Origin: JAUXIQ01 sp030620925 [NCBI: Nitrospinota bacterium]
GTDB lineage: Bacteria > JAUXIQ01
DNA: 9,016 nucleotides
Assembly (NCBI GenBank): GCA_030620925.1
Contig: JAUXIQ010000056.1
Span: 1-9,016, forward strand
Direction of reading: 5' to 3'
A program made the translations under genes and the position numbers. A model generated the notes under the pieces. That model was not told the DNA's origin. It saw nothing but the letters and a program-made list of their open reading frames with translations, and did no database searches. Each line of letters starts with the position of its first letter. The stretch's first letter is position 1. Below, piece after piece: positions 1,661-9,016 of the stretch.

Positions 1661-1662
1661 CT

Positions 1663-1713
1663 GTCATTCTGAACGTAGCCCCGTGGTACGCGGGGCGGAG
1701 TGAAGAATCTCGC
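1663..1713 (+). repeat. Dispersed intergenic repeat, left inverted copy
   Basis: The left part (gtcattctgaacg, 1663-1675) and right part (gaagaatctcgc, 1702-1713) match the reverse complement of 1826-1854. Here they are separated by an extra segment that folds as gccccg/cggggc (around 1678-1696). The core, of the type tcattctgagcgaag...gaagaatct, is one I recognise as a common dispersed intergenic sequence in many bacterial genomes. No coding sense is apparent. Confidence 0.6.
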
Positions 1714-2057: not shown

Positions 2058-2086
2058 TTGACTGCGTGCCGATACTAAGTTATAAT
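2058..2086 (+). promoter_or_regulatory. Near-consensus sigma-70 promoter of the leucine leader
   Basis: TTGACT (2058-2063) and TATAAT (2081-2086) are separated by exactly 17 bases, so 11 of 12 hexamer positions match consensus. Transcription should begin near 2092-2094, about 50 bases before the leader peptide start. The surrounding sequence is AT-rich, unlike the genes on both sides. This is the only strong promoter I see in the window. Confidence 0.85.
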
Positions 2087-2144
2087 CAGACACAATATAA
2101 ATGAACGGTTACTTTTAACCCGAACTATCAGGACAACAGTATTA

Positions 2145-2249
2145 ATGTTTAGCAACACTACTCTCAATTTAGATGGGCTTCTCGGCCTCGCTTTATTAGG
2201 GCTGCTCCTACTTTTGCGGGAGCCCGTCGCGTCGAGTAGTGTTCGGTAG
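2145..2249 (+). CDS. Leucine-rich leader peptide of a transcription attenuator (34 aa)
   Basis: An ATG at 2145 opens a 34-codon frame ending in TAG at 2247-2249. The peptide begins MFSNTTLNLDG, continues LLGLALLGLLLLL and ends REPVASSSVR. Twelve of 34 residues are leucine, ten of them within 13 consecutive residues. Several leucine codon types are used (ctt, ctc, tta, ctg, cta, ttg), so many tRNA-Leu isoacceptors are sampled. A modest AGGA (2130-2133) lies 11 bases upstream. The frame lies between a near-consensus promoter and an intrinsic terminator, the signature of leu/ilv leader peptides whose translation senses charged leucyl-tRNA. The peptide itself is not expected to have a function. 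Leucine-rich membrane segments can look similar, but the position and overlapping RNA structures favour a leader. Confidence 0.87.
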   Translation: MFSNTTLNLDGLLGLALLGLLLLLREPVASSSVR

Positions 2250-2310
2250 TTAATAATAAAATATAGAGTACTCGATGCCATGGGCTCAAAAAGCTCATGG
2301 CATTTTTTTT
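2154..2310 (+). promoter_or_regulatory. Leucine attenuator: alternative anti-antiterminator, antiterminator and terminator stems
   Basis: Three competing helices can be drawn by hand. 1:2 pairs 2154-2163 (aacactactc) with 2234-2243 (gagtagtgtt), a perfect 10 bp enclosing the leucine codons. 2:3 pairs 2221-2238 with 2269-2286 over 18 positions, with one mismatch and two G-U pairs. 3:4 pairs 2275-2286 with 2292-2303, the terminator. Strand 2 is shared by the first two and strand 3 by the last two, so they exclude one another. A ribosome stalled in the leucine run (2178-2216) leaves strand 2 free for the antiterminator. A ribosome reaching the stop at 2247 covers strand 2 and lets the terminator form. 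Without translation, 1:2 again favours termination. Expected output: expression rises when leucyl-tRNA is scarce. Confidence 0.8.
2275..2310 (+). terminator. Intrinsic terminator of the leucine attenuator
   Basis: The 12-bp stem atgccatgggct/agctcatggcat (one G-U pair) has a 5-base loop (caaaa) and runs directly into eight T residues (2303-2310). It is the strongest Rho-independent terminator in the window. With the promoter at 2058 it defines a terminated leader RNA of about 217 nt. Confidence 0.93.
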
Positions 2311-2368: not shown

Positions 2369-2515
2369 ATGGCCTTGGGGTTAGCCATAGCCAAAGATTT
2401 ATCTGACGAAGCTGAACTTAACGAGATTTGTGTAGATTCCATAACTGAGAAACACTTTTCACCCAAGCAGAACTTTAAGAGAACTAAGATACCGGAGGTT
2501 CAAGAGAATGATTAA
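2369..2515 (+). CDS. Tentative 48-aa small ORF overlapping the HMG-CoA synthase start
   Basis: An ATG at 2369 follows a G-rich, Shine-Dalgarno-like stretch (ggaagggggg, 2357-2366) and opens 48 codons (MALGLAIAKDLSDEAELNEI...). The TAA at 2513-2515 overlaps the HMG-CoA synthase start by 8 bases, as in translationally coupled genes. I recognise no family. It could be a real small protein, a coupling peptide, a relic of a gene that once followed the attenuator, or chance. The Shine-Dalgarno-like run sits closer than usual to the ATG. Confidence 0.25.
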   Translation: MALGLAIAKDLSDEAELNEICVDSITEKHFSPKQNFKRTKIPEVQEND

Positions 2516-4064
2516 CGTTGGCATTGATGACATTGAAATCTATTTCCCTCGCCTGTTCTTTGACATCAAAGACCTGGCCGAGCTGCGCGATATCGAGTAT
2601 GACAAACTGAACCGCGGCCTCGGCCTGGAGGCAATGGCTATTCCCGATACCCACGAGGACGCGGCCACCATGGGGGCCAACCCCGTGGCCAGCCTCATCG
2701 ACCGCAACAATATAGACCCCCGCCGCATCGGCCGCATCTATTTGGGGACGGAAAGCGCCCTGGACGGCTCCAAACCGACGGCGACCTACATCCTGGACAT
2801 GCTGGAACAGCGCTATTCGCCCGAGTACGGTGAGGACTGCCTGCGCAACTGCGACGTGGTAGATATGACTTTCGCCTGCATCGGCGCTGTCGACGCCCTG
2901 CACAACTCCCTCGACTGGGTCGCACGGGGCGGCGAAAGCGATGACCGCATCGGCATCGTCGTCTTCTCCGACATCGCCAAGTACGACATGCACTCCTCGG
3001 GCGAGTATACCCAGGGTGCCGCCGGCGGCGCGCTGCTCATCAAGCAGAACCCCAGGTTGATGGTGATACCCGACTGCTGGGGCGTCTCCACCAAGCCCGT
3101 GCACGACTTTTTCAAGCCGCGCCGGACGGTCGGTTTTTCGCAACTGTTCGATAACGTGTTGACCCTGGCCAAGGAGATGGGTGCCGACCTCCCCGGAGGT
3201 TTGGCCGAGAAGATGATCAAGATGCTGCCCAAATCCAAAGTCAAGGACCAGGGCATCTTCAGCCACGGCCATAAATCCTTGAACCTGCACGTAGACACGC
3301 CGGTGTTCGACGGCCAATACTCAAACCGCTGCTACAGCGGCGCCATCAAAACCGCCTTCACGTCGTTCAAGGAGCAGGCGATCAAAACCGGACGCTACAA
3401 CCCCGCTCAGGACGAGATTATCACCGAGCAGTGGAAGCGCGTAAACATGCACCTCCCCTACGCTTTCCAGGGTAAGCGAATGTTCCCGGACATCTTCCTC
3501 TGCGACCGCCGCGGCCTGCCCGCCTGGCAGGAGATAACCGATCAGGTCGGCGAGGAACCGAATCGCGAGAATTTCGACGACACGCCTGAGGGTAAAGATG
3601 AATGGCACCGCCAGATGGACAGTTTCCGCAGGACTGTCTCCCAGACGCCGCACTACAAGAAATTCGTGGAGGAGCGCATCGAGAAGGGACAGCGCGCATC
3701 GAGCCTCATCGGCAACATATACACCGGCTCCATATTCCTCTCTTTGATGAGCATGCTGGAGGCCGATATGCAGGACGGTATAGAACTCACCGGCAAGCCC
3801 GTAGGAATGTTCGGCTACGGTTCGGGCGCCAAGGCGAAAGTATTCGAGGGCATCATCCAGCCGGAATGGAAAGAGGTCACCGCCCGGTTCAACCTGTTCG
3901 ATCGTCTGGCTACTCGCCACTCCGTGGACAGCAAGTGCTACGAGGAGCTGCACCGCGAGGCGAGGAGAGAAAGCGTGGTACCGCCCAAAGGCGAGTTCGC
4001 TCTTGTCGAAGTGGGTGTAGACGGCGTAAACGAAGGCGCACGCTCATACCAGTGGATCGGTTAG
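2508..4064 (+). CDS. Hydroxymethylglutaryl-CoA synthase, long form with internal insertion
   Basis: The 518-aa product belongs to the thiolase-fold HMG-CoA synthases, which condense acetyl-CoA with acetoacetyl-CoA to HMG-CoA in the cytosol. The expected triad is present: Glu82 (GTESALDGSK), Cys124 (TFACIGA) and His315 (NMHLPYAF). Other family marks are IEIYFP near the N-terminus, DGQYSNRCY (268-276), GNIYTGS (402-408) and the GYGSG loop (436-440). It is longer than typical bacterial enzymes (~390 aa). About 50 extra residues lie between 207 and 262, and a C-terminal extension after ~450 ends RSYQW, as in eukaryote-like forms. GGAGG at 2494-2498 lies 9 bases before the ATG. The gene is strongly GC-biased at third positions. 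It is the first large gene after the leucine attenuator. HMG-CoA could feed mevalonate/isoprenoid or ketone-body-type chemistry; no other pathway gene is visible. Confidence 0.9.
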   Translation: MINVGIDDIEIYFPRLFFDIKDLAELRDIEYDKLNRGLGLEAMAIPDTHEDAATMGANPVASLIDRNNIDPRRIGRIYLGTESALDGSKPTATYILDMLEQRYSPEYGEDCLRNCDVVDMTFACIGAVDALHNSLDWVARGGESDDRIGIVVFSDIAKYDMHSSGEYTQGAAGGALLIKQNPRLMVIPDCWGVSTKPVHDFFKPRRTVGFSQLFDNVLTLAKEMGADLPGGLAEKMIKMLPKSKVKDQGIFSHGHKSLNLHVDTPVFDGQYSNRCYSGAIKTAFTSFKEQAIKTGRYNPAQDEIITEQWKRVNMHLPYAFQGKRMFPDIFLCDRRGLPAWQEITDQVGEEPNRENFDDTPEGKDEWHRQMDSFRRTVSQTPHYKKFVEERIEKGQRASSLIGNIYTGSIFLSLMSMLEADMQDGIELTGKPVGMFGYGSGAKAKVFEGIIQPEWKEVTARFNLFDRLATRHSVDSKCYEELHREARRESVVPPKGEFALVEVGVDGVNEGARSYQWIG

Positions 4065-4175: not shown

Positions 4176-4188
4176 AAAGCAATCCTTC

Positions 4189-4320
4189 GATTTCTATCTG
4201 CCCTTGAATACCGGCTTTCTTTTTTCAACGAAGGCCGTAGCGCCTTCCTTATGGTTTTCGGTGGCGAAGCCAGTAGCGCATGGCGAATTAGTGCCGCTCC
4301 TTCCACTCATCCAGCGGCAT
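4189..4320. repeat. Left copy of a ~132-bp direct repeat flanking the sugar operon
   Basis: It aligns with 8560-8690 in the same orientation. By hand I count 11 mismatches and a single 1-base insertion (an extra c near 4270-4271), about 91% identity. Similarity fades abruptly to the right of 4320. The right copy is the 3' end of the crotonase gene. Confidence 0.9.
4194..4320 (-). pseudogene. Decayed 3' fragment of an enoyl-CoA hydratase/isomerase (crotonase) gene
   Basis: Read on the minus strand from 4320, the fragment begins MPLDEWKERH and then hits an in-frame TAA where the intact gene has TCA (Ser). A 1-base insertion shifts the frame shortly after. Past the shift the family C-terminus is clear: TENHKEGATAFVEKRKPVF, ending at a stop at 4194-4196. 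The matching part of the intact gene at 8565 reads TEDHKEGATAFVEKREPVF. Some differences are silent and others change residues (Asn to Lys, Trp to Arg, Asp to Asn, Glu to Lys), so this may be the stump of a diverged paralogue or an old duplicate. The 5' part of the gene is absent; unrelated sequence leading to the sugar operon takes its place. Confidence 0.88.
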
Positions 4321-4474
4321 TTTGGAAGAAAACTGCCATCCTTCTCAGATAAGTCTATATCACCCGCGCCCGCTGAGTCATATAATATAGGGGAAAGACT
4401 TTTTTAGACACTGCGCGGCTTTTTTTGTATTATAGAACAGGTGATCTCGAATATAGGGAGGGATACGAGTAAAT
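4321..4474 (+). promoter_or_regulatory. AT-rich leader before the GH130 operon, lone -10-like element
   Basis: The region turns AT-rich and contains TATAAT at 4381-4386, about 90 bases before the first GH130 start, and two T-runs (around 4400 and 4420). No acceptable -35 hexamer lies 16-18 bases upstream, so the promoter call is weak. An agggagg (4455-4461) lies 13 bases before the ATG at 4475. The sugar operon promoter is probably in here but cannot be fixed by eye. Confidence 0.3.
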
Positions 4475-5410
4475 ATGTCCAGTAAATTCAAGCATGACGT
4501 TGTTAACCGATGGGCGGGTAATCCAATTATTACACAGGATAACCTGCCTTTTACCACCACGAACATCTACAGCGCTGCAGCGGTCGAAAAAGATGGTGAG
4601 TATATCCTGCTGGTGACGGTGGAAGATCTTGAGGGCAAGACTTTCATTCACCTGGCCCGCAGCGACGATGGGTACAATTTCGATGTAGCGGGCGACCCGT
4701 TTTTAAGCCCCTCTCAAGACGAAAAATACCGGTTATTCGAGGAGAGGGGAGTACGCGAAGCCAGGGTAACCTTTATGGAGGGGAAATATTATATCGTTTA
4801 TATGGGTACAGGGTTTCATGGTTTTGTTTTATGTCTGGCAGTTACAGAGGATTTTAACAATGTAGAGAGACTCGGAGTGATATCGGAGCCGGAAACCAAG
4901 GCGGGGGCACTGTTCCCGTGCAAATTCAACGGCAAATACGCCAGGCTGGAGCGTCCCAAAGAGGGAGACCGGATCTGGATATCCTATTCTCATGATCTTT
5001 TGACCTGGGGAGAAAGTGATGAGGTGATTTCTCCTCGAGGCGGGTTCTGGGATTCCGGATTGATCGGGTGCGCCTTTCCACCCATGGAAATCGAGGAAGG
5101 ATGGCTTCTGGGATACTACGCCATAAAGAATAAGCCGAGCGGCCCCATTTGGAGGATTGGAGCAGCCATTTTAGACCGCGATGATCCCTGCAGGGTCACA
5201 GCCCGGAGCAATATACCGATTATCTCCCCCCGCGAGGATTATGAGCGGATAGGGGATATGAACAACGTGGTTTTCTCTTCCGGGGCAATACTGGAAAAAA
5301 CCGGCGAACTTAAAATCTATTATGCCGCCGCCGACAACTGCCTGTGTGTGGGTACTGCAAAGCTTTCAGAAGTCGTTACAACCTGTATCGAAAGCAGCAA
5401 GGAGTATTGA
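4475..5410 (+). CDS. GH130-family protein, probable pseudoenzyme (first of three)
   Basis: The 311-aa protein has the five-bladed beta-propeller repeat pattern of GH130 (NPIIT, ARSDDGYNFD, GKYYIVY, RIWISYSHDLLTWG, RIGDMNNVVFSSG). It aligns end to end with the next gene. GH130 enzymes phosphorolyse or hydrolyse beta-mannosides using an Asp proton donor in an EDPR-type motif. Here that motif reads REAR (94-97), putting Glu95 in place of Asp. Other conserved positions are also changed relative to its neighbour: Asn33 to Ser33, Arg48 to Thr48 and His218 to Tyr215. The YARLERP segment (Arg158, Arg160) and Asp287 remain. The frame is intact and has a Shine-Dalgarno sequence, so it appears maintained. 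It may be a substrate-binding or partner subunit, or an enzyme with altered chemistry. There is no signal peptide, so it is probably cytosolic. Confidence 0.87.
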   Translation: MSSKFKHDVVNRWAGNPIITQDNLPFTTTNIYSAAAVEKDGEYILLVTVEDLEGKTFIHLARSDDGYNFDVAGDPFLSPSQDEKYRLFEERGVREARVTFMEGKYYIVYMGTGFHGFVLCLAVTEDFNNVERLGVISEPETKAGALFPCKFNGKYARLERPKEGDRIWISYSHDLLTWGESDEVISPRGGFWDSGLIGCAFPPMEIEEGWLLGYYAIKNKPSGPIWRIGAAILDRDDPCRVTARSNIPIISPREDYERIGDMNNVVFSSGAILEKTGELKIYYAAADNCLCVGTAKLSEVVTTCIESSKEY

Positions 5411-5411
5411 G

Positions 5412-6344
5412 ATGCCCGGTAGGCGAGGTCCTGATCTTTTACACCGCTGGGAAGGGAATCCGATTATTACCCTGGAAGACATTCCTTTCCGGTGCAATAC
5501 GGTATTTAACGGCTCCTCTGTAAAGATCGGAGATGAATATTTGATTCTTCTGCGGGTCGAGGGACAGCAGGGTTATTCATTCTTCGCCCTGGCCAGGGGG
5601 GATGACGGCTATCATTTTGATGTAGACCCGGAGCCTGTCCTGCTTCCGGAAAAAAACGGTCCTTTTGCAAAATATGAGACCCGTGGGTTGGAAGACCCAC
5701 GGATCACCTTAATCGATGGGGTCTATTACATTCTATATTCTGTTGCTTCCAGTTACGGAACAAGGATCGCTATTGCAAAAACCCATGACTTTCAACGCTA
5801 CGAACGCATCGCCATCATTTCCGAACCGGGCAACAAGGACGGCGTGCTCTTCCCGGAGAAGATCAAGGGAAGGTATGCCAGGCTGGACCGACCTCTTGGA
5901 TCGTATAATGTCGGCTGCATCTGGATTTCATATTCTGACGACCTGATCCACTGGGGCCATCATGAACCGGTAATCATGCCGCGGTCGGGATATTGGGACG
6001 CTGACCGCATAGGAGCATCCGTTCCGCCTATAAAAACCGAGAAGGGATGGCTGGAAATTTACCACGGCTTCAAAATGACAGCCTCAGGCCCCATCTACCG
6101 GATGGGAGCGGTTCTCCTGGACCTGGACGATCCCGCAAAAGTGATTGCCCGAAGCGATGATGCCATACTTTCACCAAGGGAAAAATACGAGCGAATAGGA
6201 GACGTCAACAACGTAGTTTTTGCCTGCGGCGCCATAGTAGAGCCGAACAACGAAGTGAAAATATATTACGGTGGGGCGGACACCTGTTTATGTGTTGCGA
6301 CCGTAAATATAGATCGGCTGATTGAGGTTATAATAGAGGTATGA
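5412..6344 (+). CDS. GH130-family glycoside phosphorylase/hydrolase (second of three)
   Basis: The start is placed at the ATG at 5412: aaggag (5399-5404) lies 7 bases upstream and the preceding gene stops at 5410. The frame extends further upstream, but only over the end of that gene. The 310-aa product keeps the GH130 signature residues: FNGSS (Asn33), LLRVE (Arg48), GLEDPRIT with catalytic-type Asp95, YARLDRP (Arg158, Arg160), IYHG (His218) and YYGGAD (Asp290). The retained Arg and His residues suit a phosphorylase that would release a sugar 1-phosphate, probably mannose 1-phosphate, from a beta-mannoside, but linkage and substrate cannot be assigned from sequence. It overlaps the next gene by 4 bases (ATGA), implying translational coupling. 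It is a tandem paralogue of the gene before it. Confidence 0.9.
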   Translation: MPGRRGPDLLHRWEGNPIITLEDIPFRCNTVFNGSSVKIGDEYLILLRVEGQQGYSFFALARGDDGYHFDVDPEPVLLPEKNGPFAKYETRGLEDPRITLIDGVYYILYSVASSYGTRIAIAKTHDFQRYERIAIISEPGNKDGVLFPEKIKGRYARLDRPLGSYNVGCIWISYSDDLIHWGHHEPVIMPRSGYWDADRIGASVPPIKTEKGWLEIYHGFKMTASGPIYRMGAVLLDLDDPAKVIARSDDAILSPREKYERIGDVNNVVFACGAIVEPNNEVKIYYGGADTCLCVATVNIDRLIEVIIEV

Positions 6345-7387
6345 TTCGACGACATGAGACAAATCCTCTGATCAAGCCTGAAATGGTCAAGCCGTCCCGC
6401 AGCGGCTATCGTGTGAGAGGAGTGTTTAACCCGGCGGCCGCAGTCTACGGCGACGAGATAGTTCTTTTGCTGAGGGTAGCCGAGGACTGCGAGAGCAAAG
6501 ACGGCCGGGTGGCGGTTCCCTATTACAGGTTTGAAGGGGGACGGGGCCATCCGGAAATTCTGGAAGTAAGGGCGGATGATCCCGCTGTGCAGTTAAAGGA
6601 TACGCGGGGCGTGGTTTATGAGGGAAGAGACTACCTGTCCACCCTGAGTCATATTCGGCTGGCTCGCAGCCGGGATGGGGTAAATTTTAAAGTAGACGAA
6701 AAACCGTTCATCTATCCCTGCCATGAGAGTGAATCTTTCGGGGTGGAAGACGCAAGAGTTACAAAAATAGGCGACAACTATTATATCAACTATACCGCCG
6801 TTTCCGGCGACGGCTTTGCCACCGCCCTGGCCGCCACTGAAAATTTCGTCGATATTGACCGGAAGGGGATTATCTTCCCGCCGCAGAATAAGGATGTTTC
6901 CATTCTCCCGGAAAAGATCAAGGGGAAATATTGCGCACTGCACCGCCCCAACAACGACGGGTTCGGTTTGCCCTCCATCTGGTACAGCGAATCGCAGGAC
7001 CTTATTCACTGGGGCAATCACAAGTGCCTGGCCCGGCCGCTGGACACGATGTGGGAGAAAATGAAAATAGGTGGTGGAGCGGCACCGATAAAAACAAGGG
7101 AAGGATGGCTGGAAATTTACCACGGCAAAGGAGAAGACCATGTCTACTCGTTGTCGTTATTATTGTTGGATTTAAACCAGCCTTCACTAGTGTTGAAAAG
7201 AGGGCGAGAGCCGATCCTATTCCCGCAAGAGAAATATGAAACCGAGGGCTTTTTCCCCAACGTCGTGTTTTCCAACGGCTTGATTGAAAAAGATGACGGC
7301 AGACTTTTTATTTATTACGGCGCATGCGATGAAACAGTTTGTCTGGCGGAAACGACCGTGGAATCACTTTTAAACACATTGAAATAG
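6341..7387 (+). CDS. GH130-family glycoside phosphorylase/hydrolase (third, divergent)
   Basis: The 348-aa product is a more distant GH130 member with about 35 extra residues between the first two blades. Key positions are present: GVFNPAA (Asn30), LLLRVAED (Arg45), ESFGVEDARVT with Asp137, KYCALHRP (His201, Arg202), LEIYHG (His261) and YYGACDE. The ALHRP motif in place of the ARLDRP of its neighbour suggests a different GH130 subfamily and a different linkage or chain length. Family members include beta-1,2- and beta-1,4-mannoside phosphorylases and some hydrolases. The start overlaps the preceding stop (ATGA) and has only a poor Shine-Dalgarno, consistent with coupled translation. No signal peptide is visible, so the substrate is probably cytosolic. 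Confidence 0.9.
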   Translation: MIRRHETNPLIKPEMVKPSRSGYRVRGVFNPAAAVYGDEIVLLLRVAEDCESKDGRVAVPYYRFEGGRGHPEILEVRADDPAVQLKDTRGVVYEGRDYLSTLSHIRLARSRDGVNFKVDEKPFIYPCHESESFGVEDARVTKIGDNYYINYTAVSGDGFATALAATENFVDIDRKGIIFPPQNKDVSILPEKIKGKYCALHRPNNDGFGLPSIWYSESQDLIHWGNHKCLARPLDTMWEKMKIGGGAAPIKTREGWLEIYHGKGEDHVYSLSLLLLDLNQPSLVLKRGREPILFPQEKYETEGFFPNVVFSNGLIEKDDGRLFIYYGACDETVCLAETTVESLLNTLK

Positions 7388-7400: not shown

Positions 7401-8531
7401 ATGAGAATAGCTTTTATTTCCACCTATCCTCCCATTGAATGCGGCATTGCCACTTACACCAGTTACCTTAATGATGCGTTGAGAAAGCTGCATAACGAGA
7501 CGCTGGTGATCAGCCCTTTCGGTGCAGCGGGAGAAAATGTGTTTCCCATTTACTCGCGGGGCAGCGCCTACTTCGCCTCTGAAACCTTTAACATTTGCGA
7601 AGAGATAACCCCCGACCTGGTCCACATACAACACGAATACGGACTCTACGGCCCTCAGAAGGGAGTCCACATAATAGAGCTGATTCTGAGATTACGCCTG
7701 GTCGGCTTACCTGTCGTTACCACTCTGCACACGGTGTACGAAGACCTTAATAATGATGAACAAATTATTCTCCGCATAGTGGTGGATGAAAGCTCGGCGA
7801 TTATCGTCCACGAGGATTATCAGAAAGAGACGCTGGTGAGATATTTCGGCGGAGGGGAAAAAATCCACGTGATACCCCATGGCGTGCGGGAGCTCCTGCC
7901 CATTCCCGACGCCAAAGAGAAGCTGGAAATCTTCGACAAACAGGTGATACTTTTATGCGGCTACTTTCGGCCCACCAAGGGGTTTCATAAAATTGTGGAA
8001 TGGTTCCCGGAAATCTGTAGGCAAGTGGATGATGTGATTCTGGTAATCGCAGGGAAATCGCGAGGCCTGGAGTTCCGGGACTATCAGAGGAAGTTTTTTG
8101 AGTCGATCAACAGTTCTCCGGTCAGTGACAAAATCGCTGTGCTGAGAGGACAATTCCCCCAGGATACCTTTGATACGATCGTCTCCGCCAGCGACGTGGT
8201 GGTATTACCTTATGAAATCGGCGCCCAAAGCGGCATAATGGCACACTGTTTCGCCTTCGGCAAGCCGGTCATTACCTCAAATCTGCCGGCGTTTAAGAAG
8301 ACCATCGACAAGAGCAAAGGGGGCTTCACCTGCGATACCGAAGCAGATTACATGGAAAATATTGTAAACACCCTCAATGACTCGAACTTACAAAAGATGC
8401 TCGAGGAAAATATAAGAAACTACGTAAAAGAAAAAGTGGGCTGGTCAACTGTGGCCCAACAACATATCGAGGTTTATCGCTCGGTCATTAGAGTTCCCTA
8501 CGGCAACGCAAAGTATGTCTATCTGGGATAA
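7401..8531 (+). CDS. GT4-family glycosyltransferase (GT-B fold)
   Basis: The 376-aa product has the GT-B two-domain layout. The N-terminal acceptor domain contains MRIAFISTYPPIECGIATYT and VHIQHEYGLYGPQKG. The C-terminal nucleotide-sugar domain contains GYFRPTKG (187-194, with the phosphate-contacting Lys194) and ASDVVVLPYEIGAQSG (263-278). Such enzymes transfer a sugar from a nucleotide-sugar donor with retention. In place of the usual EX7E pair only Glu272 is present; the second position (280) is Met, as in a GT4 subgroup with PYxxxxxSG. No membrane segment is seen. It follows the GH130 genes by 13 bases, so it probably makes the oligosaccharide or glycoside that they break down. GDP-mannose is a reasonable donor guess from the GH130 context only. 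Confidence 0.88.
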   Translation: MRIAFISTYPPIECGIATYTSYLNDALRKLHNETLVISPFGAAGENVFPIYSRGSAYFASETFNICEEITPDLVHIQHEYGLYGPQKGVHIIELILRLRLVGLPVVTTLHTVYEDLNNDEQIILRIVVDESSAIIVHEDYQKETLVRYFGGGEKIHVIPHGVRELLPIPDAKEKLEIFDKQVILLCGYFRPTKGFHKIVEWFPEICRQVDDVILVIAGKSRGLEFRDYQRKFFESINSSPVSDKIAVLRGQFPQDTFDTIVSASDVVVLPYEIGAQSGIMAHCFAFGKPVITSNLPAFKKTIDKSKGGFTCDTEADYMENIVNTLNDSNLQKMLEENIRNYVKEKVGWSTVAQQHIEVYRSVIRVPYGNAKYVYLG

Positions 8532-8559
8532 ACGTCACGTGTAACTGAGAAGTTAATCC

Positions 8560-8690
8560 GATTTCTATTTCCCCTTGAATACCGGCTCTCTCTTCTCGAC
8601 GAAGGCCGTAGCGCCTTCCTTATGGTCTTCGGTGGCGAAGCAGTAGCGCATGGCGAATGAGTGCCACTCATTCCACTCGTCCAGCGGCAT
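8560..8690. repeat. Right copy of the direct repeat flanking the sugar operon
   Basis: This segment is the last ~126 coding bases of the crotonase gene plus 5 bases beyond its stop. It matches 4189-4320 at about 91% in the same orientation. It is the intact, coding copy. Confidence 0.9.
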
Positions 8691-9016
8691 ATTAAGGCCC
8701 CTGCGGATGCCTTCCTTGGCCAGTTTCAGCGATATCGGAGGCTTGTTGGCGATCCTGCCCGCCAGCTCCATGGTAGCAGGCATCAGCTCCTCGTGGGGAA
8801 CCACCTTGTTGACCAGGCCGATGCGCGCCGCCTCCGCCCCGTCTATGATGTCGGCGGTTAGTATCAGCTCGTAAGCCTTGGCCAGACCCACCAGCCTGGG
8901 CAGCATGATCATCCCTTCGTCGGGGATCAGCCCCACTCTCAGGAACACCTCCCCGAACCTGGCTCTTTCAGAGGCTATCCTCATGTCGCACATCAGGGTG
9001 ATATCGCAGCCGTAGC
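8565..9016 (-). CDS. Crotonase-superfamily enoyl-CoA hydratase/isomerase, 5' end missing
   Basis: The gene runs off the right edge on the minus strand, so the ATG at 8993 is internal. The visible ~150 residues begin YGCDITLMCDMRIASERARF, which includes the oxyanion-hole loop. They continue through GLIPDEG...LPRLVG, DIIDGAEAARIGLVNKVVP and the C-terminal FATEDHKEGATAFVEKREPVF typical of mitochondrial-type enoyl-CoA hydratases. Crotonases stabilise a thioester enolate and carry out hydration, isomerisation or hydrolysis of acyl-CoAs. Compared with rat or human hydratase, the catalytic Glu144 is Asp here and Glu164 is Phe (in FGEVF). An Asp in IPDEG sits 8 residues later, where dienoyl-CoA isomerase has its second acid. 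The function may therefore be isomerase or another activity. The gene converges with the GT4 gene across 33 bases. Confidence 0.9.
   Translation of the reverse strand, partial: YGCDITLMCDMRIASERARFGEVFLRVGLIPDEGMIMLPRLVGLAKAYELILTADIIDGAEAARIGLVNKVVPHEELMPATMELAGRIANKPPISLKLAKEGIRRGLNMPLDEWNEWHSFAMRYCFATEDHKEGATAFVEKREPVFKGK

What the first reader, a model, noticed from the sequence alone, without database searches (positions are those of the whole stretch)
2058..2310. Complete leucine-sensing attenuator with an unannotated 34-aa leader peptide
A TTGACT-N17-TATAAT promoter, a 34-codon leader with ten leucines in 13 residues, and a terminator with eight T's lie within 253 bases. Three mutually exclusive helices can be drawn: 2154-2163/2234-2243, 2221-2238/2269-2286 and 2275-2286/2292-2303. 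The leucine codons sit exactly where a stalled ribosome would leave the antiterminator strand free. The element is easy to miss because the peptide is so short. Ribosome-mediated attenuation of leu/ilv operons is established; assigning it here is my inference from the fit.
Basis: partly seen in the sequence, partly recalled or inferred. Interest (0 to 1): 0.82.

Follow-up and report, generated by a model that had tools for sequence, protein, structure and literature searches.

The report
Leucine-sensing switch before HMG-CoA synthase
A short leucine-rich peptide and a refolding RNA appear to form a classic amino-acid-starvation switch; a sister copy sits before the leucine gene leuA, but this copy unexpectedly precedes a gene for HMG-CoA synthase, which is not a leucine-making enzyme.

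Summary
Promoter-like site, 34-codon leader (2145-2249; 10 Leu in 13 residues), three helices and terminator are where stated and exceed chance. A near-copy (78% over 137 bp) lies in the same genome directly before leuA; a third, rich in aromatic codons, lies before a DAHP synthase. Two other genomes carry a Leu-rich version before leuA, two more a Val-rich version before acetolactate synthase. The antiterminator covaries across these seven (15 double-sided changes, shuffled mean 5.1). Masking a ribosome codon by codon gives antiterminator with the A-site at residues 18-22 and terminator from residue 26 on. The attenuator type is known; the new point is the target. Why leucine should control it is inferred: it may replace HMG-CoA or isovaleryl-CoA that leucine breakdown would otherwise supply. 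No expression data were available.

The parts
2058..2086 (+). sigma-70-type promoter-like site TTGACT-N17-TATAAT
   Evidence: 11 of 12 consensus matches; a consensus match only, initiation near 2093 is inferred
2145..2249 (+). 34-codon leader peptide ORF; codons 18-22 (2196-2210) are the computed stall window
2154..2243 (+). outer anti-antiterminator helix 2154-2163 with 2234-2243
   Evidence: fold
   Evidence: fold
2221..2286 (+). antiterminator helix 2221-2238 with 2269-2286 (17 of 18 pairs)
   Evidence: covariation; constrained folds
2274..2310 (+). intrinsic terminator: stem 2274-2286/2292-2304, loop of 5, eight T at 2303-2310
   Evidence: folds
2369..2515 (+). 48-aa ORF (frame open from 2297) after the terminator that overlaps the start of the next gene; function unknown
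   Evidence: no Pfam or NCBIfam match at E <= 0.001
2508..4064 (+). HMG-CoA synthase homologue, 518 aa; Glu82, Cys124, His315 align with conserved residues of solved HMG-CoA synthases
   Evidence: below the stricter NCBIfam cut-offs (235 of 360.35 bits for TIGR01835), so the exact reaction is inferred; that these three are the catalytic triad is recalled

Best explanation
A ribosome-mediated transcription attenuator that senses charged leucyl-tRNA and controls an HMG-CoA synthase gene. With enough leucine the ribosome reaches the stop codon (2247-2249) and covers 2221-2238; the terminator 2274-2304 forms and transcription ends near 2310. If it stalls at codons 18-22 it blocks the 5' arms 2154-2163 and 2172-2182, 2221-2238 pairs with 2269-2286, no terminator forms and polymerase reads into 2508-4064. 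Untranslated RNA also terminates. Shown by computation: the parts, the folds, the covariation, the sister copies. Inferred: initiation near 2093, the response to leucine, and the purpose, which I take to be making HMG-CoA from acetyl units when leucine, whose breakdown can yield HMG-CoA and isovaleryl-CoA, is short.
For: Parts present and beyond chance. A 78% identical copy before leuA in the same genome. Same architecture with codons matched to the pathway before leuA in G365 and G097, acetolactate synthase in G143 and G281, and DAHP synthase in the own genome. Antiterminator covariation: 5 double-sided cells in 4 sequences (shuffled mean 2.5, 10 of 500 as high) and 15 in 7 sequences (mean 5.1, 0 of 500). 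Constrained folds: antiterminator 0.82-0.94 with the A-site at residues 18-22, terminator 0.95-0.99 from residue 26 to the stop; leuA_own switches at 17-21 and leuA_G097 at 14-19.
Against: The controlled gene is not a leucine-biosynthesis gene. The seven-sequence alignment was fitted to the model, and the counts of varying pairs alone are unremarkable (169 of 500 shuffles as high, 39 of 500). Terminator pairs hardly vary. G365 with a single stalled mask gave only 0.51, and aroF, with my rough strand definition, none. Stalls at residues 2-17 and 23-25 of the window element give mixed results (0.13-0.72 and 0.40-0.44). The leader start has only a weak Shine-Dalgarno-like stretch (by reading). 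Predictions of this type have failed tests before: in Streptomyces, changing candidate regulatory codons of ilvB had no effect (PMC1262725, passages). No other HMG-CoA synthase with this leader was found. No expression data.
Confidence: 0.85

Rival explanations
1. A relic: the leuA attenuator was copied in front of HMG-CoA synthase by chance and acts there only as a terminator or promoter source, with no regulatory value.
For: The similarity to the leuA element found by BLAST covers 2175-2311 and is high (78%), as expected of a duplication; the controlled gene lies outside leucine synthesis; the element was not found at other HMG-CoA synthase loci.
Against: All three differences in the antiterminator strand between the two copies keep the pairing state: two are G-U/A-U or C-G/U-G exchanges and one lies at the position unpaired in both. 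The reading frame is intact and Leu-richer than leuA's (12 against 9 Leu), the computed switch is intact and an 11-of-12 promoter-like site stands in front.
Confidence: 0.1
2. The 34-aa ORF encodes a functional small hydrophobic (membrane) protein, and the hairpin is its ordinary terminator.
For: Leu-rich short peptides can span membranes; a terminator directly follows the ORF.
Against: No Pfam or NCBIfam match. What is conserved is the alternative pairing, and the peptide changes from Leu- to Val- to aromatic-rich with the downstream gene, which a membrane protein would not do.
Confidence: 0.03
3. A T-box, riboswitch or other translation-independent leader RNA senses leucine or another ligand.
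For: An upstream leader RNA with alternative hairpins before a metabolic gene.
Against: No match to any of 4227 Rfam families at E <= 1 in the window; the Leu-rich ORF and the stall scan explain the sensing without a ligand pocket.
Confidence: 0.02

Closest known systems
Ribosome-mediated leader-peptide attenuators of leu and ilv operons (E. coli and Salmonella leu/ilv leaders, recalled; S. aureus ilv-leu, PMC5794164, passages)
   Same: Short ORF with clustered codons of the sensed amino acid, anti-antiterminator, antiterminator and intrinsic terminator in one leader.
   Different: The gene downstream is an HMG-CoA synthase homologue rather than a branched-chain amino-acid gene. No Rfam family matches at E <= 1.
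leuA attenuator of the same genome (L015) and of G365 and G097 (L020, L022)
   Same: Homologous: 78% identity to L015 over 137 bp and the same antiterminator and terminator strands in all four.
   Different: The own leuA leader also has Ile and Val codons (3 Ile, 4 Val), where the window's leader has 12 Leu, no Ile, 2 Val. BLAST similarity does not extend upstream of 2175.
Myxobacterial alternative isovaleryl-CoA (Aib) operon with MvaS (PMC9131029 and PMC9636800, passages)
   Same: An HMG-CoA synthase raised on starvation and in bkd mutants, which lack the leucine-breakdown route to isovaleryl-CoA. 5hwq and 5hwo, the best solved relatives of the window's protein, are to my recollection M. xanthus MvaS.
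   Different: There a protein, AibR, senses isovaleryl-CoA; here an RNA would sense leucyl-tRNA. PMC9131029 calls that pathway possibly unique to myxobacteria, and no separate AibA/AibB pair was found in this genome.

Membership tests
Ribosome-mediated leader-peptide attenuator | Short ORF with clustered codons for one amino acid | tested here: met
   2145-2249, 10 Leu in 13 residues; 0 of 2000 shuffles as dense
Ribosome-mediated leader-peptide attenuator | Intrinsic terminator between leader ORF and gene | tested here: met
   2274-2310
Ribosome-mediated leader-peptide attenuator | Antiterminator that competes with the terminator | tested here: met
   2221-2238/2269-2286, covarying
Ribosome-mediated leader-peptide attenuator | Anti-antiterminator that forms when no ribosome is present | tested here: met
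   Fold of 2093-2310 and P(terminator) 0.98 for free RNA
Ribosome-mediated leader-peptide attenuator | Stalling at the regulatory codons favours the antiterminator, completion the terminator | tested here: met
   By computation only, 3 of 3 elements scanned codon by codon; the coarser single mask gave 0.51 for G365 and 0.00 for aroF
Ribosome-mediated leader-peptide attenuator | Codons sensed belong to the pathway of the gene controlled | tested here: inconclusive
   Fits in the six sister elements (G281's gene judged by eye), but the window's gene is an HMG-CoA synthase homologue
Ribosome-mediated leader-peptide attenuator | Measured terminated RNA and leucine-dependent read-through | not testable with these tools
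   Needs RNA or reporter data
Rfam families, including leader and T-box families | Covariance-model match | tested here: not met
   0 matches at E <= 1 in the window, both strands
Actinobacterial LEU element (PMC1262725) | Conserved pseudoknot before leuA | not tested
   Known from passages only
HMG-CoA synthase | Both Pfam domains and the Glu/Cys/His residues | tested here: met
   PF01154 80.7 and PF08540 72.5 bits, cut-offs 25 and 25.1; residues 82, 124, 315
HMG-CoA synthase (NCBIfam equivalogs) | Curated equivalog cut-off | tested here: not met
   Best TIGR01835, 235 of 360.35 bits
Myxobacterial Aib pathway | Separate AibA and AibB CoA-transferase-type subunits | tested here: not met
   One PF01144 match, in a 533-aa protein whose best NCBIfam match is FadX (372.7 of 750 bits); the genome is 89.47% complete

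The most novel reading that the evidence does not exclude
HMG-CoA synthase is a working member of this bacterium's leucine-starvation regulon: when leucyl-tRNA runs low the cell makes HMG-CoA from acetyl-CoA to replace what leucine breakdown would give, for mevalonate or for isovaleryl-CoA (branched lipids, or even leucine itself by reductive carboxylation). It would be an RNA-based counterpart of the myxobacterial AibR control.
Probability: 0.3. Interest if true: 0.68.

Novelty: new member of a known kind. Interest (0 to 1): 0.5.

Why it matters
If true, leader-peptide attenuation reaches a branch-point enzyme outside amino-acid biosynthesis, and leucine supply is tied to HMG-CoA metabolism by a switch that can be tested directly. 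Attenuator codons reveal which amino acid matters to a gene, so this one is a clue to what an HMG-CoA synthase does in a genome that also has DXR of the MEP isoprenoid route and in which mevalonate diphosphate decarboxylase was not found.

Tried and rejected
T-box or riboswitch: no Rfam match at E <= 1.

The same element before other HMG-CoA synthase genes: not found, but few were seen. One search (22 pattern stretches, 2 relatives) gave L013 and L014; L013 has no model match, L014 was not examined. One search (386 genomes, E <= 1e-40) gave only the own gene and G334, whose 400 upstream bases were read by eye. The more distant hits were not examined for leaders.

Metabolic route: HMG-CoA reductase found (378.4 bits, cut-off 27; below the NCBIfam cut-off, 354.6 of 441.8); DXR found; no match to TIGR01240 mevalonate diphosphate decarboxylase (the control rang in 8 of 14 genomes, over the cut-off in 2). 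Other lower mevalonate variants were not tested. Aib route: no separate AibA/AibB. HMG-CoA lyase present (361.7 bits, cut-off 246); I scanned 5 of the 9 longest ORFs on its contig and saw a thiamine-diphosphate enzyme and a hydro-lyase beside it, no methylcrotonyl-CoA carboxylase.

Other attenuators by terminator pattern: 52 matches in the own genome, 4 for the reversed control. Of the 30 with fetched loci, 4 had a T-run in the tail: the three known elements and one in coding-like sequence. The other 22 were not examined.

Model R1 in 386 genomes: 11 matches in 9 genomes, with strict filters. Four are the sequences the model was built from, one is own aroF, two are Val-rich leaders before acetolactate synthase. 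The other four (G168, G096, G159, G269) showed no convincing leader and were dropped before the count. The earlier count held four antisense matches and is not used.

leuA loci: one search used wrong orientations and was redone. Of 29 loci (L020-L048) only L020 and L022 match the model at E <= 10; several others have Leu-rich short ORFs with other structures, not pursued. The phylum of G365 holds only 4 genomes. Plasmid search with 1532-2507: no match.

Full report
What was checked. The stated promoter, leader ORF, helices and terminator are present at the stated places. The leader ORF runs 2145-2249. The antiterminator helix has 17 of 18 pairs. Chance is unlikely on two counts: 0 of 2000 shuffles of the intergenic region gave a comparably Leu-dense short ORF, and 0 of 200 shuffles folded as stably.

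Sister copies. A search of the own genome with 2058-2420 found one other place, on contig C128, 78% identical over 137 bp of the query. It lies directly before a 2-isopropylmalate synthase gene, leuA (717.4 bits against a cut-off of 598.7 for TIGR00973), with the leader MFYGVTQIIGGLISLVLLGLLLLVREPVALSSA. A covariance model of four elements then found a third in the own genome, on C183, before a DAHP synthase. Its leader, MGNRKAYFFNGYRFFWGYFWFSRSPSPCVFT, has 12 Phe, Tyr or Trp in 31 residues and no Leu. So this genome carries at least three attenuators of one design, with codons that fit leucine or aromatic amino acids.

Relatives elsewhere. No other genome of the phylum is held, so relatives were sought in a set of 386 genomes, own included, from across the domain. 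LeuA of G365 and G097 is 75% identical over residues 2-378 and is preceded by MTGLIRLQTLLLSLLDGLLLLKKPIACRGA and the same antiterminator and terminator strands. Two weaker model matches (E 0.008 and 0.04 for one genome each) lie before acetolactate synthase genes with Val-rich leaders (9 Val each; family tested for G143, judged alike by eye for G281). Weak E-values alone would not convince; the fitting leader and gene do.

Covariation. On the MAFFT alignment of the four closest elements the antiterminator has 93.1% of 72 cells paired, against 25.0-40.3% when slid, and 5 double-sided cells against a shuffled mean of 2.5 (10 of 500 as high). On seven elements it has 88.1% of 126 cells paired (25.8-40.7% slid), 6 pairs with double-sided changes (39 of 500 shuffles as high), 15 such cells against 5.1 (0 of 500), and a covariation score of 0.373 against 0.143 (0 of 500). 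That alignment was fitted to the model, which favours the structure; the four-sequence alignment was not. One position of the helix is unpaired in 7 of 7. In the window fold the same base, C2228, pairs with G2172 in the anti-antiterminator, which may explain why it stays unpaired here (inference). The terminator stem is nearly invariant in the four closest and uninformative.

Switch logic. Masking the RNA under and behind a ribosome, codon by codon, gives for the window element P(antiterminator) 0.82-0.94 with the A-site at residues 18-22 (Leu-Gly-Leu-Leu-Leu) and P(terminator) 0.95-0.99 from residue 26 to the stop. leuA_own switches at residues 17-21 and leuA_G097 at 14-19. Stalls elsewhere give mixed results in the window element: P(antiterminator) 0.13-0.72 at residues 2-17 and 0.40-0.44 at residues 23-25. 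Free RNA terminates in 5 of 5 elements folded (P 0.82-0.98). With a single stalled mask the window, leuA_own and leuA_G097 gave 0.90-0.93, G365 only 0.51, and aroF, with my rough strand definition, 0.00. These are equilibrium estimates with an assumed footprint.

The gene controlled. 2508-4064 is an HMG-CoA synthase homologue (PF01154 80.7 bits, PF08540 72.5 bits, both over cut-off; below the NCBIfam equivalog cut-offs). Its best solved relatives are 5hwq and 5hwo, to my recollection Myxococcus xanthus MvaS, whose structure paper is in a reference list seen. Two archaeal contigs encode a 62% identical protein; the one examined, L013, has no match to the leader model. A 48-aa ORF (2369-2515) precedes and overlaps the gene. 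The own genome also encodes an HMG-CoA reductase, directly after the end of an enoyl-CoA hydratase gene, an HMG-CoA lyase and DXR, while mevalonate diphosphate decarboxylase was not found by TIGR01240. The genome is 89.47% complete with 3.55% contamination, so absences and single contigs are weak evidence.

Meaning. In M. xanthus an HMG-CoA synthase helps make isovaleryl-CoA by a second route; its operon is lowered by AibR with isovaleryl-CoA and raised on starvation and in bkd mutants (PMC9131029, passages; PMC9636800, passages). A leucine attenuator before HMG-CoA synthase would have a like logic by another mechanism. That is inference: separate Aib decarboxylase subunits were not found, and PMC9131029 calls the pathway possibly unique to myxobacteria. 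A plainer reading, that HMG-CoA from leucine breakdown normally feeds the reductase and the synthase is needed only without leucine, is equally open.

Against known work. Leader-peptide attenuation of branched-chain amino-acid genes is long known; S. aureus has a Leu-rich case (PMC5794164, passages). Leader-peptide systems outside Proteobacteria and Actinobacteria were called unshown until 2010 (PMC2965389, passages). Caution comes from Streptomyces, where changing candidate codons of ilvB had no effect (PMC1262725, passages). A search for papers holding 'leader peptide', 'attenuation' and 'HMG-CoA synthase' together returned 0; a looser one returned 1, a paper on HMG-CoA lyase seen only in the listing. 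Both cover only the open-licence library.

Verdict.

Noticed in passing
L066 (own genome C183:13011-13134, minus strand): A third attenuator of the same design, before a DAHP synthase, with a leader holding 12 Phe/Tyr/Trp in 31 residues.
   Followed up: partly
L060 and L062 (G143, G281): Val-rich leaders (9 Val each) with the same antiterminator and terminator layout before acetolactate synthase genes.
   Followed up: partly
window 4188-4323 and 8559-8693: Direct repeat (92% over 83 nt, 91% over 53 nt). The right copy is the 3' end of the enoyl-CoA hydratase gene (minus strand); the left copy looks like a remnant of it, as if the GH130/glycosyltransferase block between had been inserted with a duplication.
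   Followed up: partly
window 4475-7387: Three consecutive GH130 mannoside-phosphorylase-like genes, followed by a glycosyltransferase (7401-8531).
   Followed up: no
window 1662-1712 and about 1826-1855: Inverted copies of a TGTCATTCTGA...GAAGAATCTCGC sequence, of the sort seen in dispersed short repeats (recalled).
   Followed up: no
L020 and L022 (G365, G097): The leuA that follows the attenuator matches only residues 2-378 of 501 (frames of 387 and 395 aa), so it seems to lack the C-terminal part, which in other LeuA proteins is the leucine feedback domain (recalled). Both genomes also have a full-length leuA (L051, L052).
   Followed up: no
L035 and L042, upstream of leuA: Other Leu-rich short ORFs before leuA with different downstream structures; possibly unrelated attenuators.
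   Followed up: no
L053:2-1576 (own genome C89): HMG-CoA reductase gene starts 21 bp after the end of an enoyl-CoA hydratase gene, a second place where these two enzyme types lie close together.
   Followed up: no
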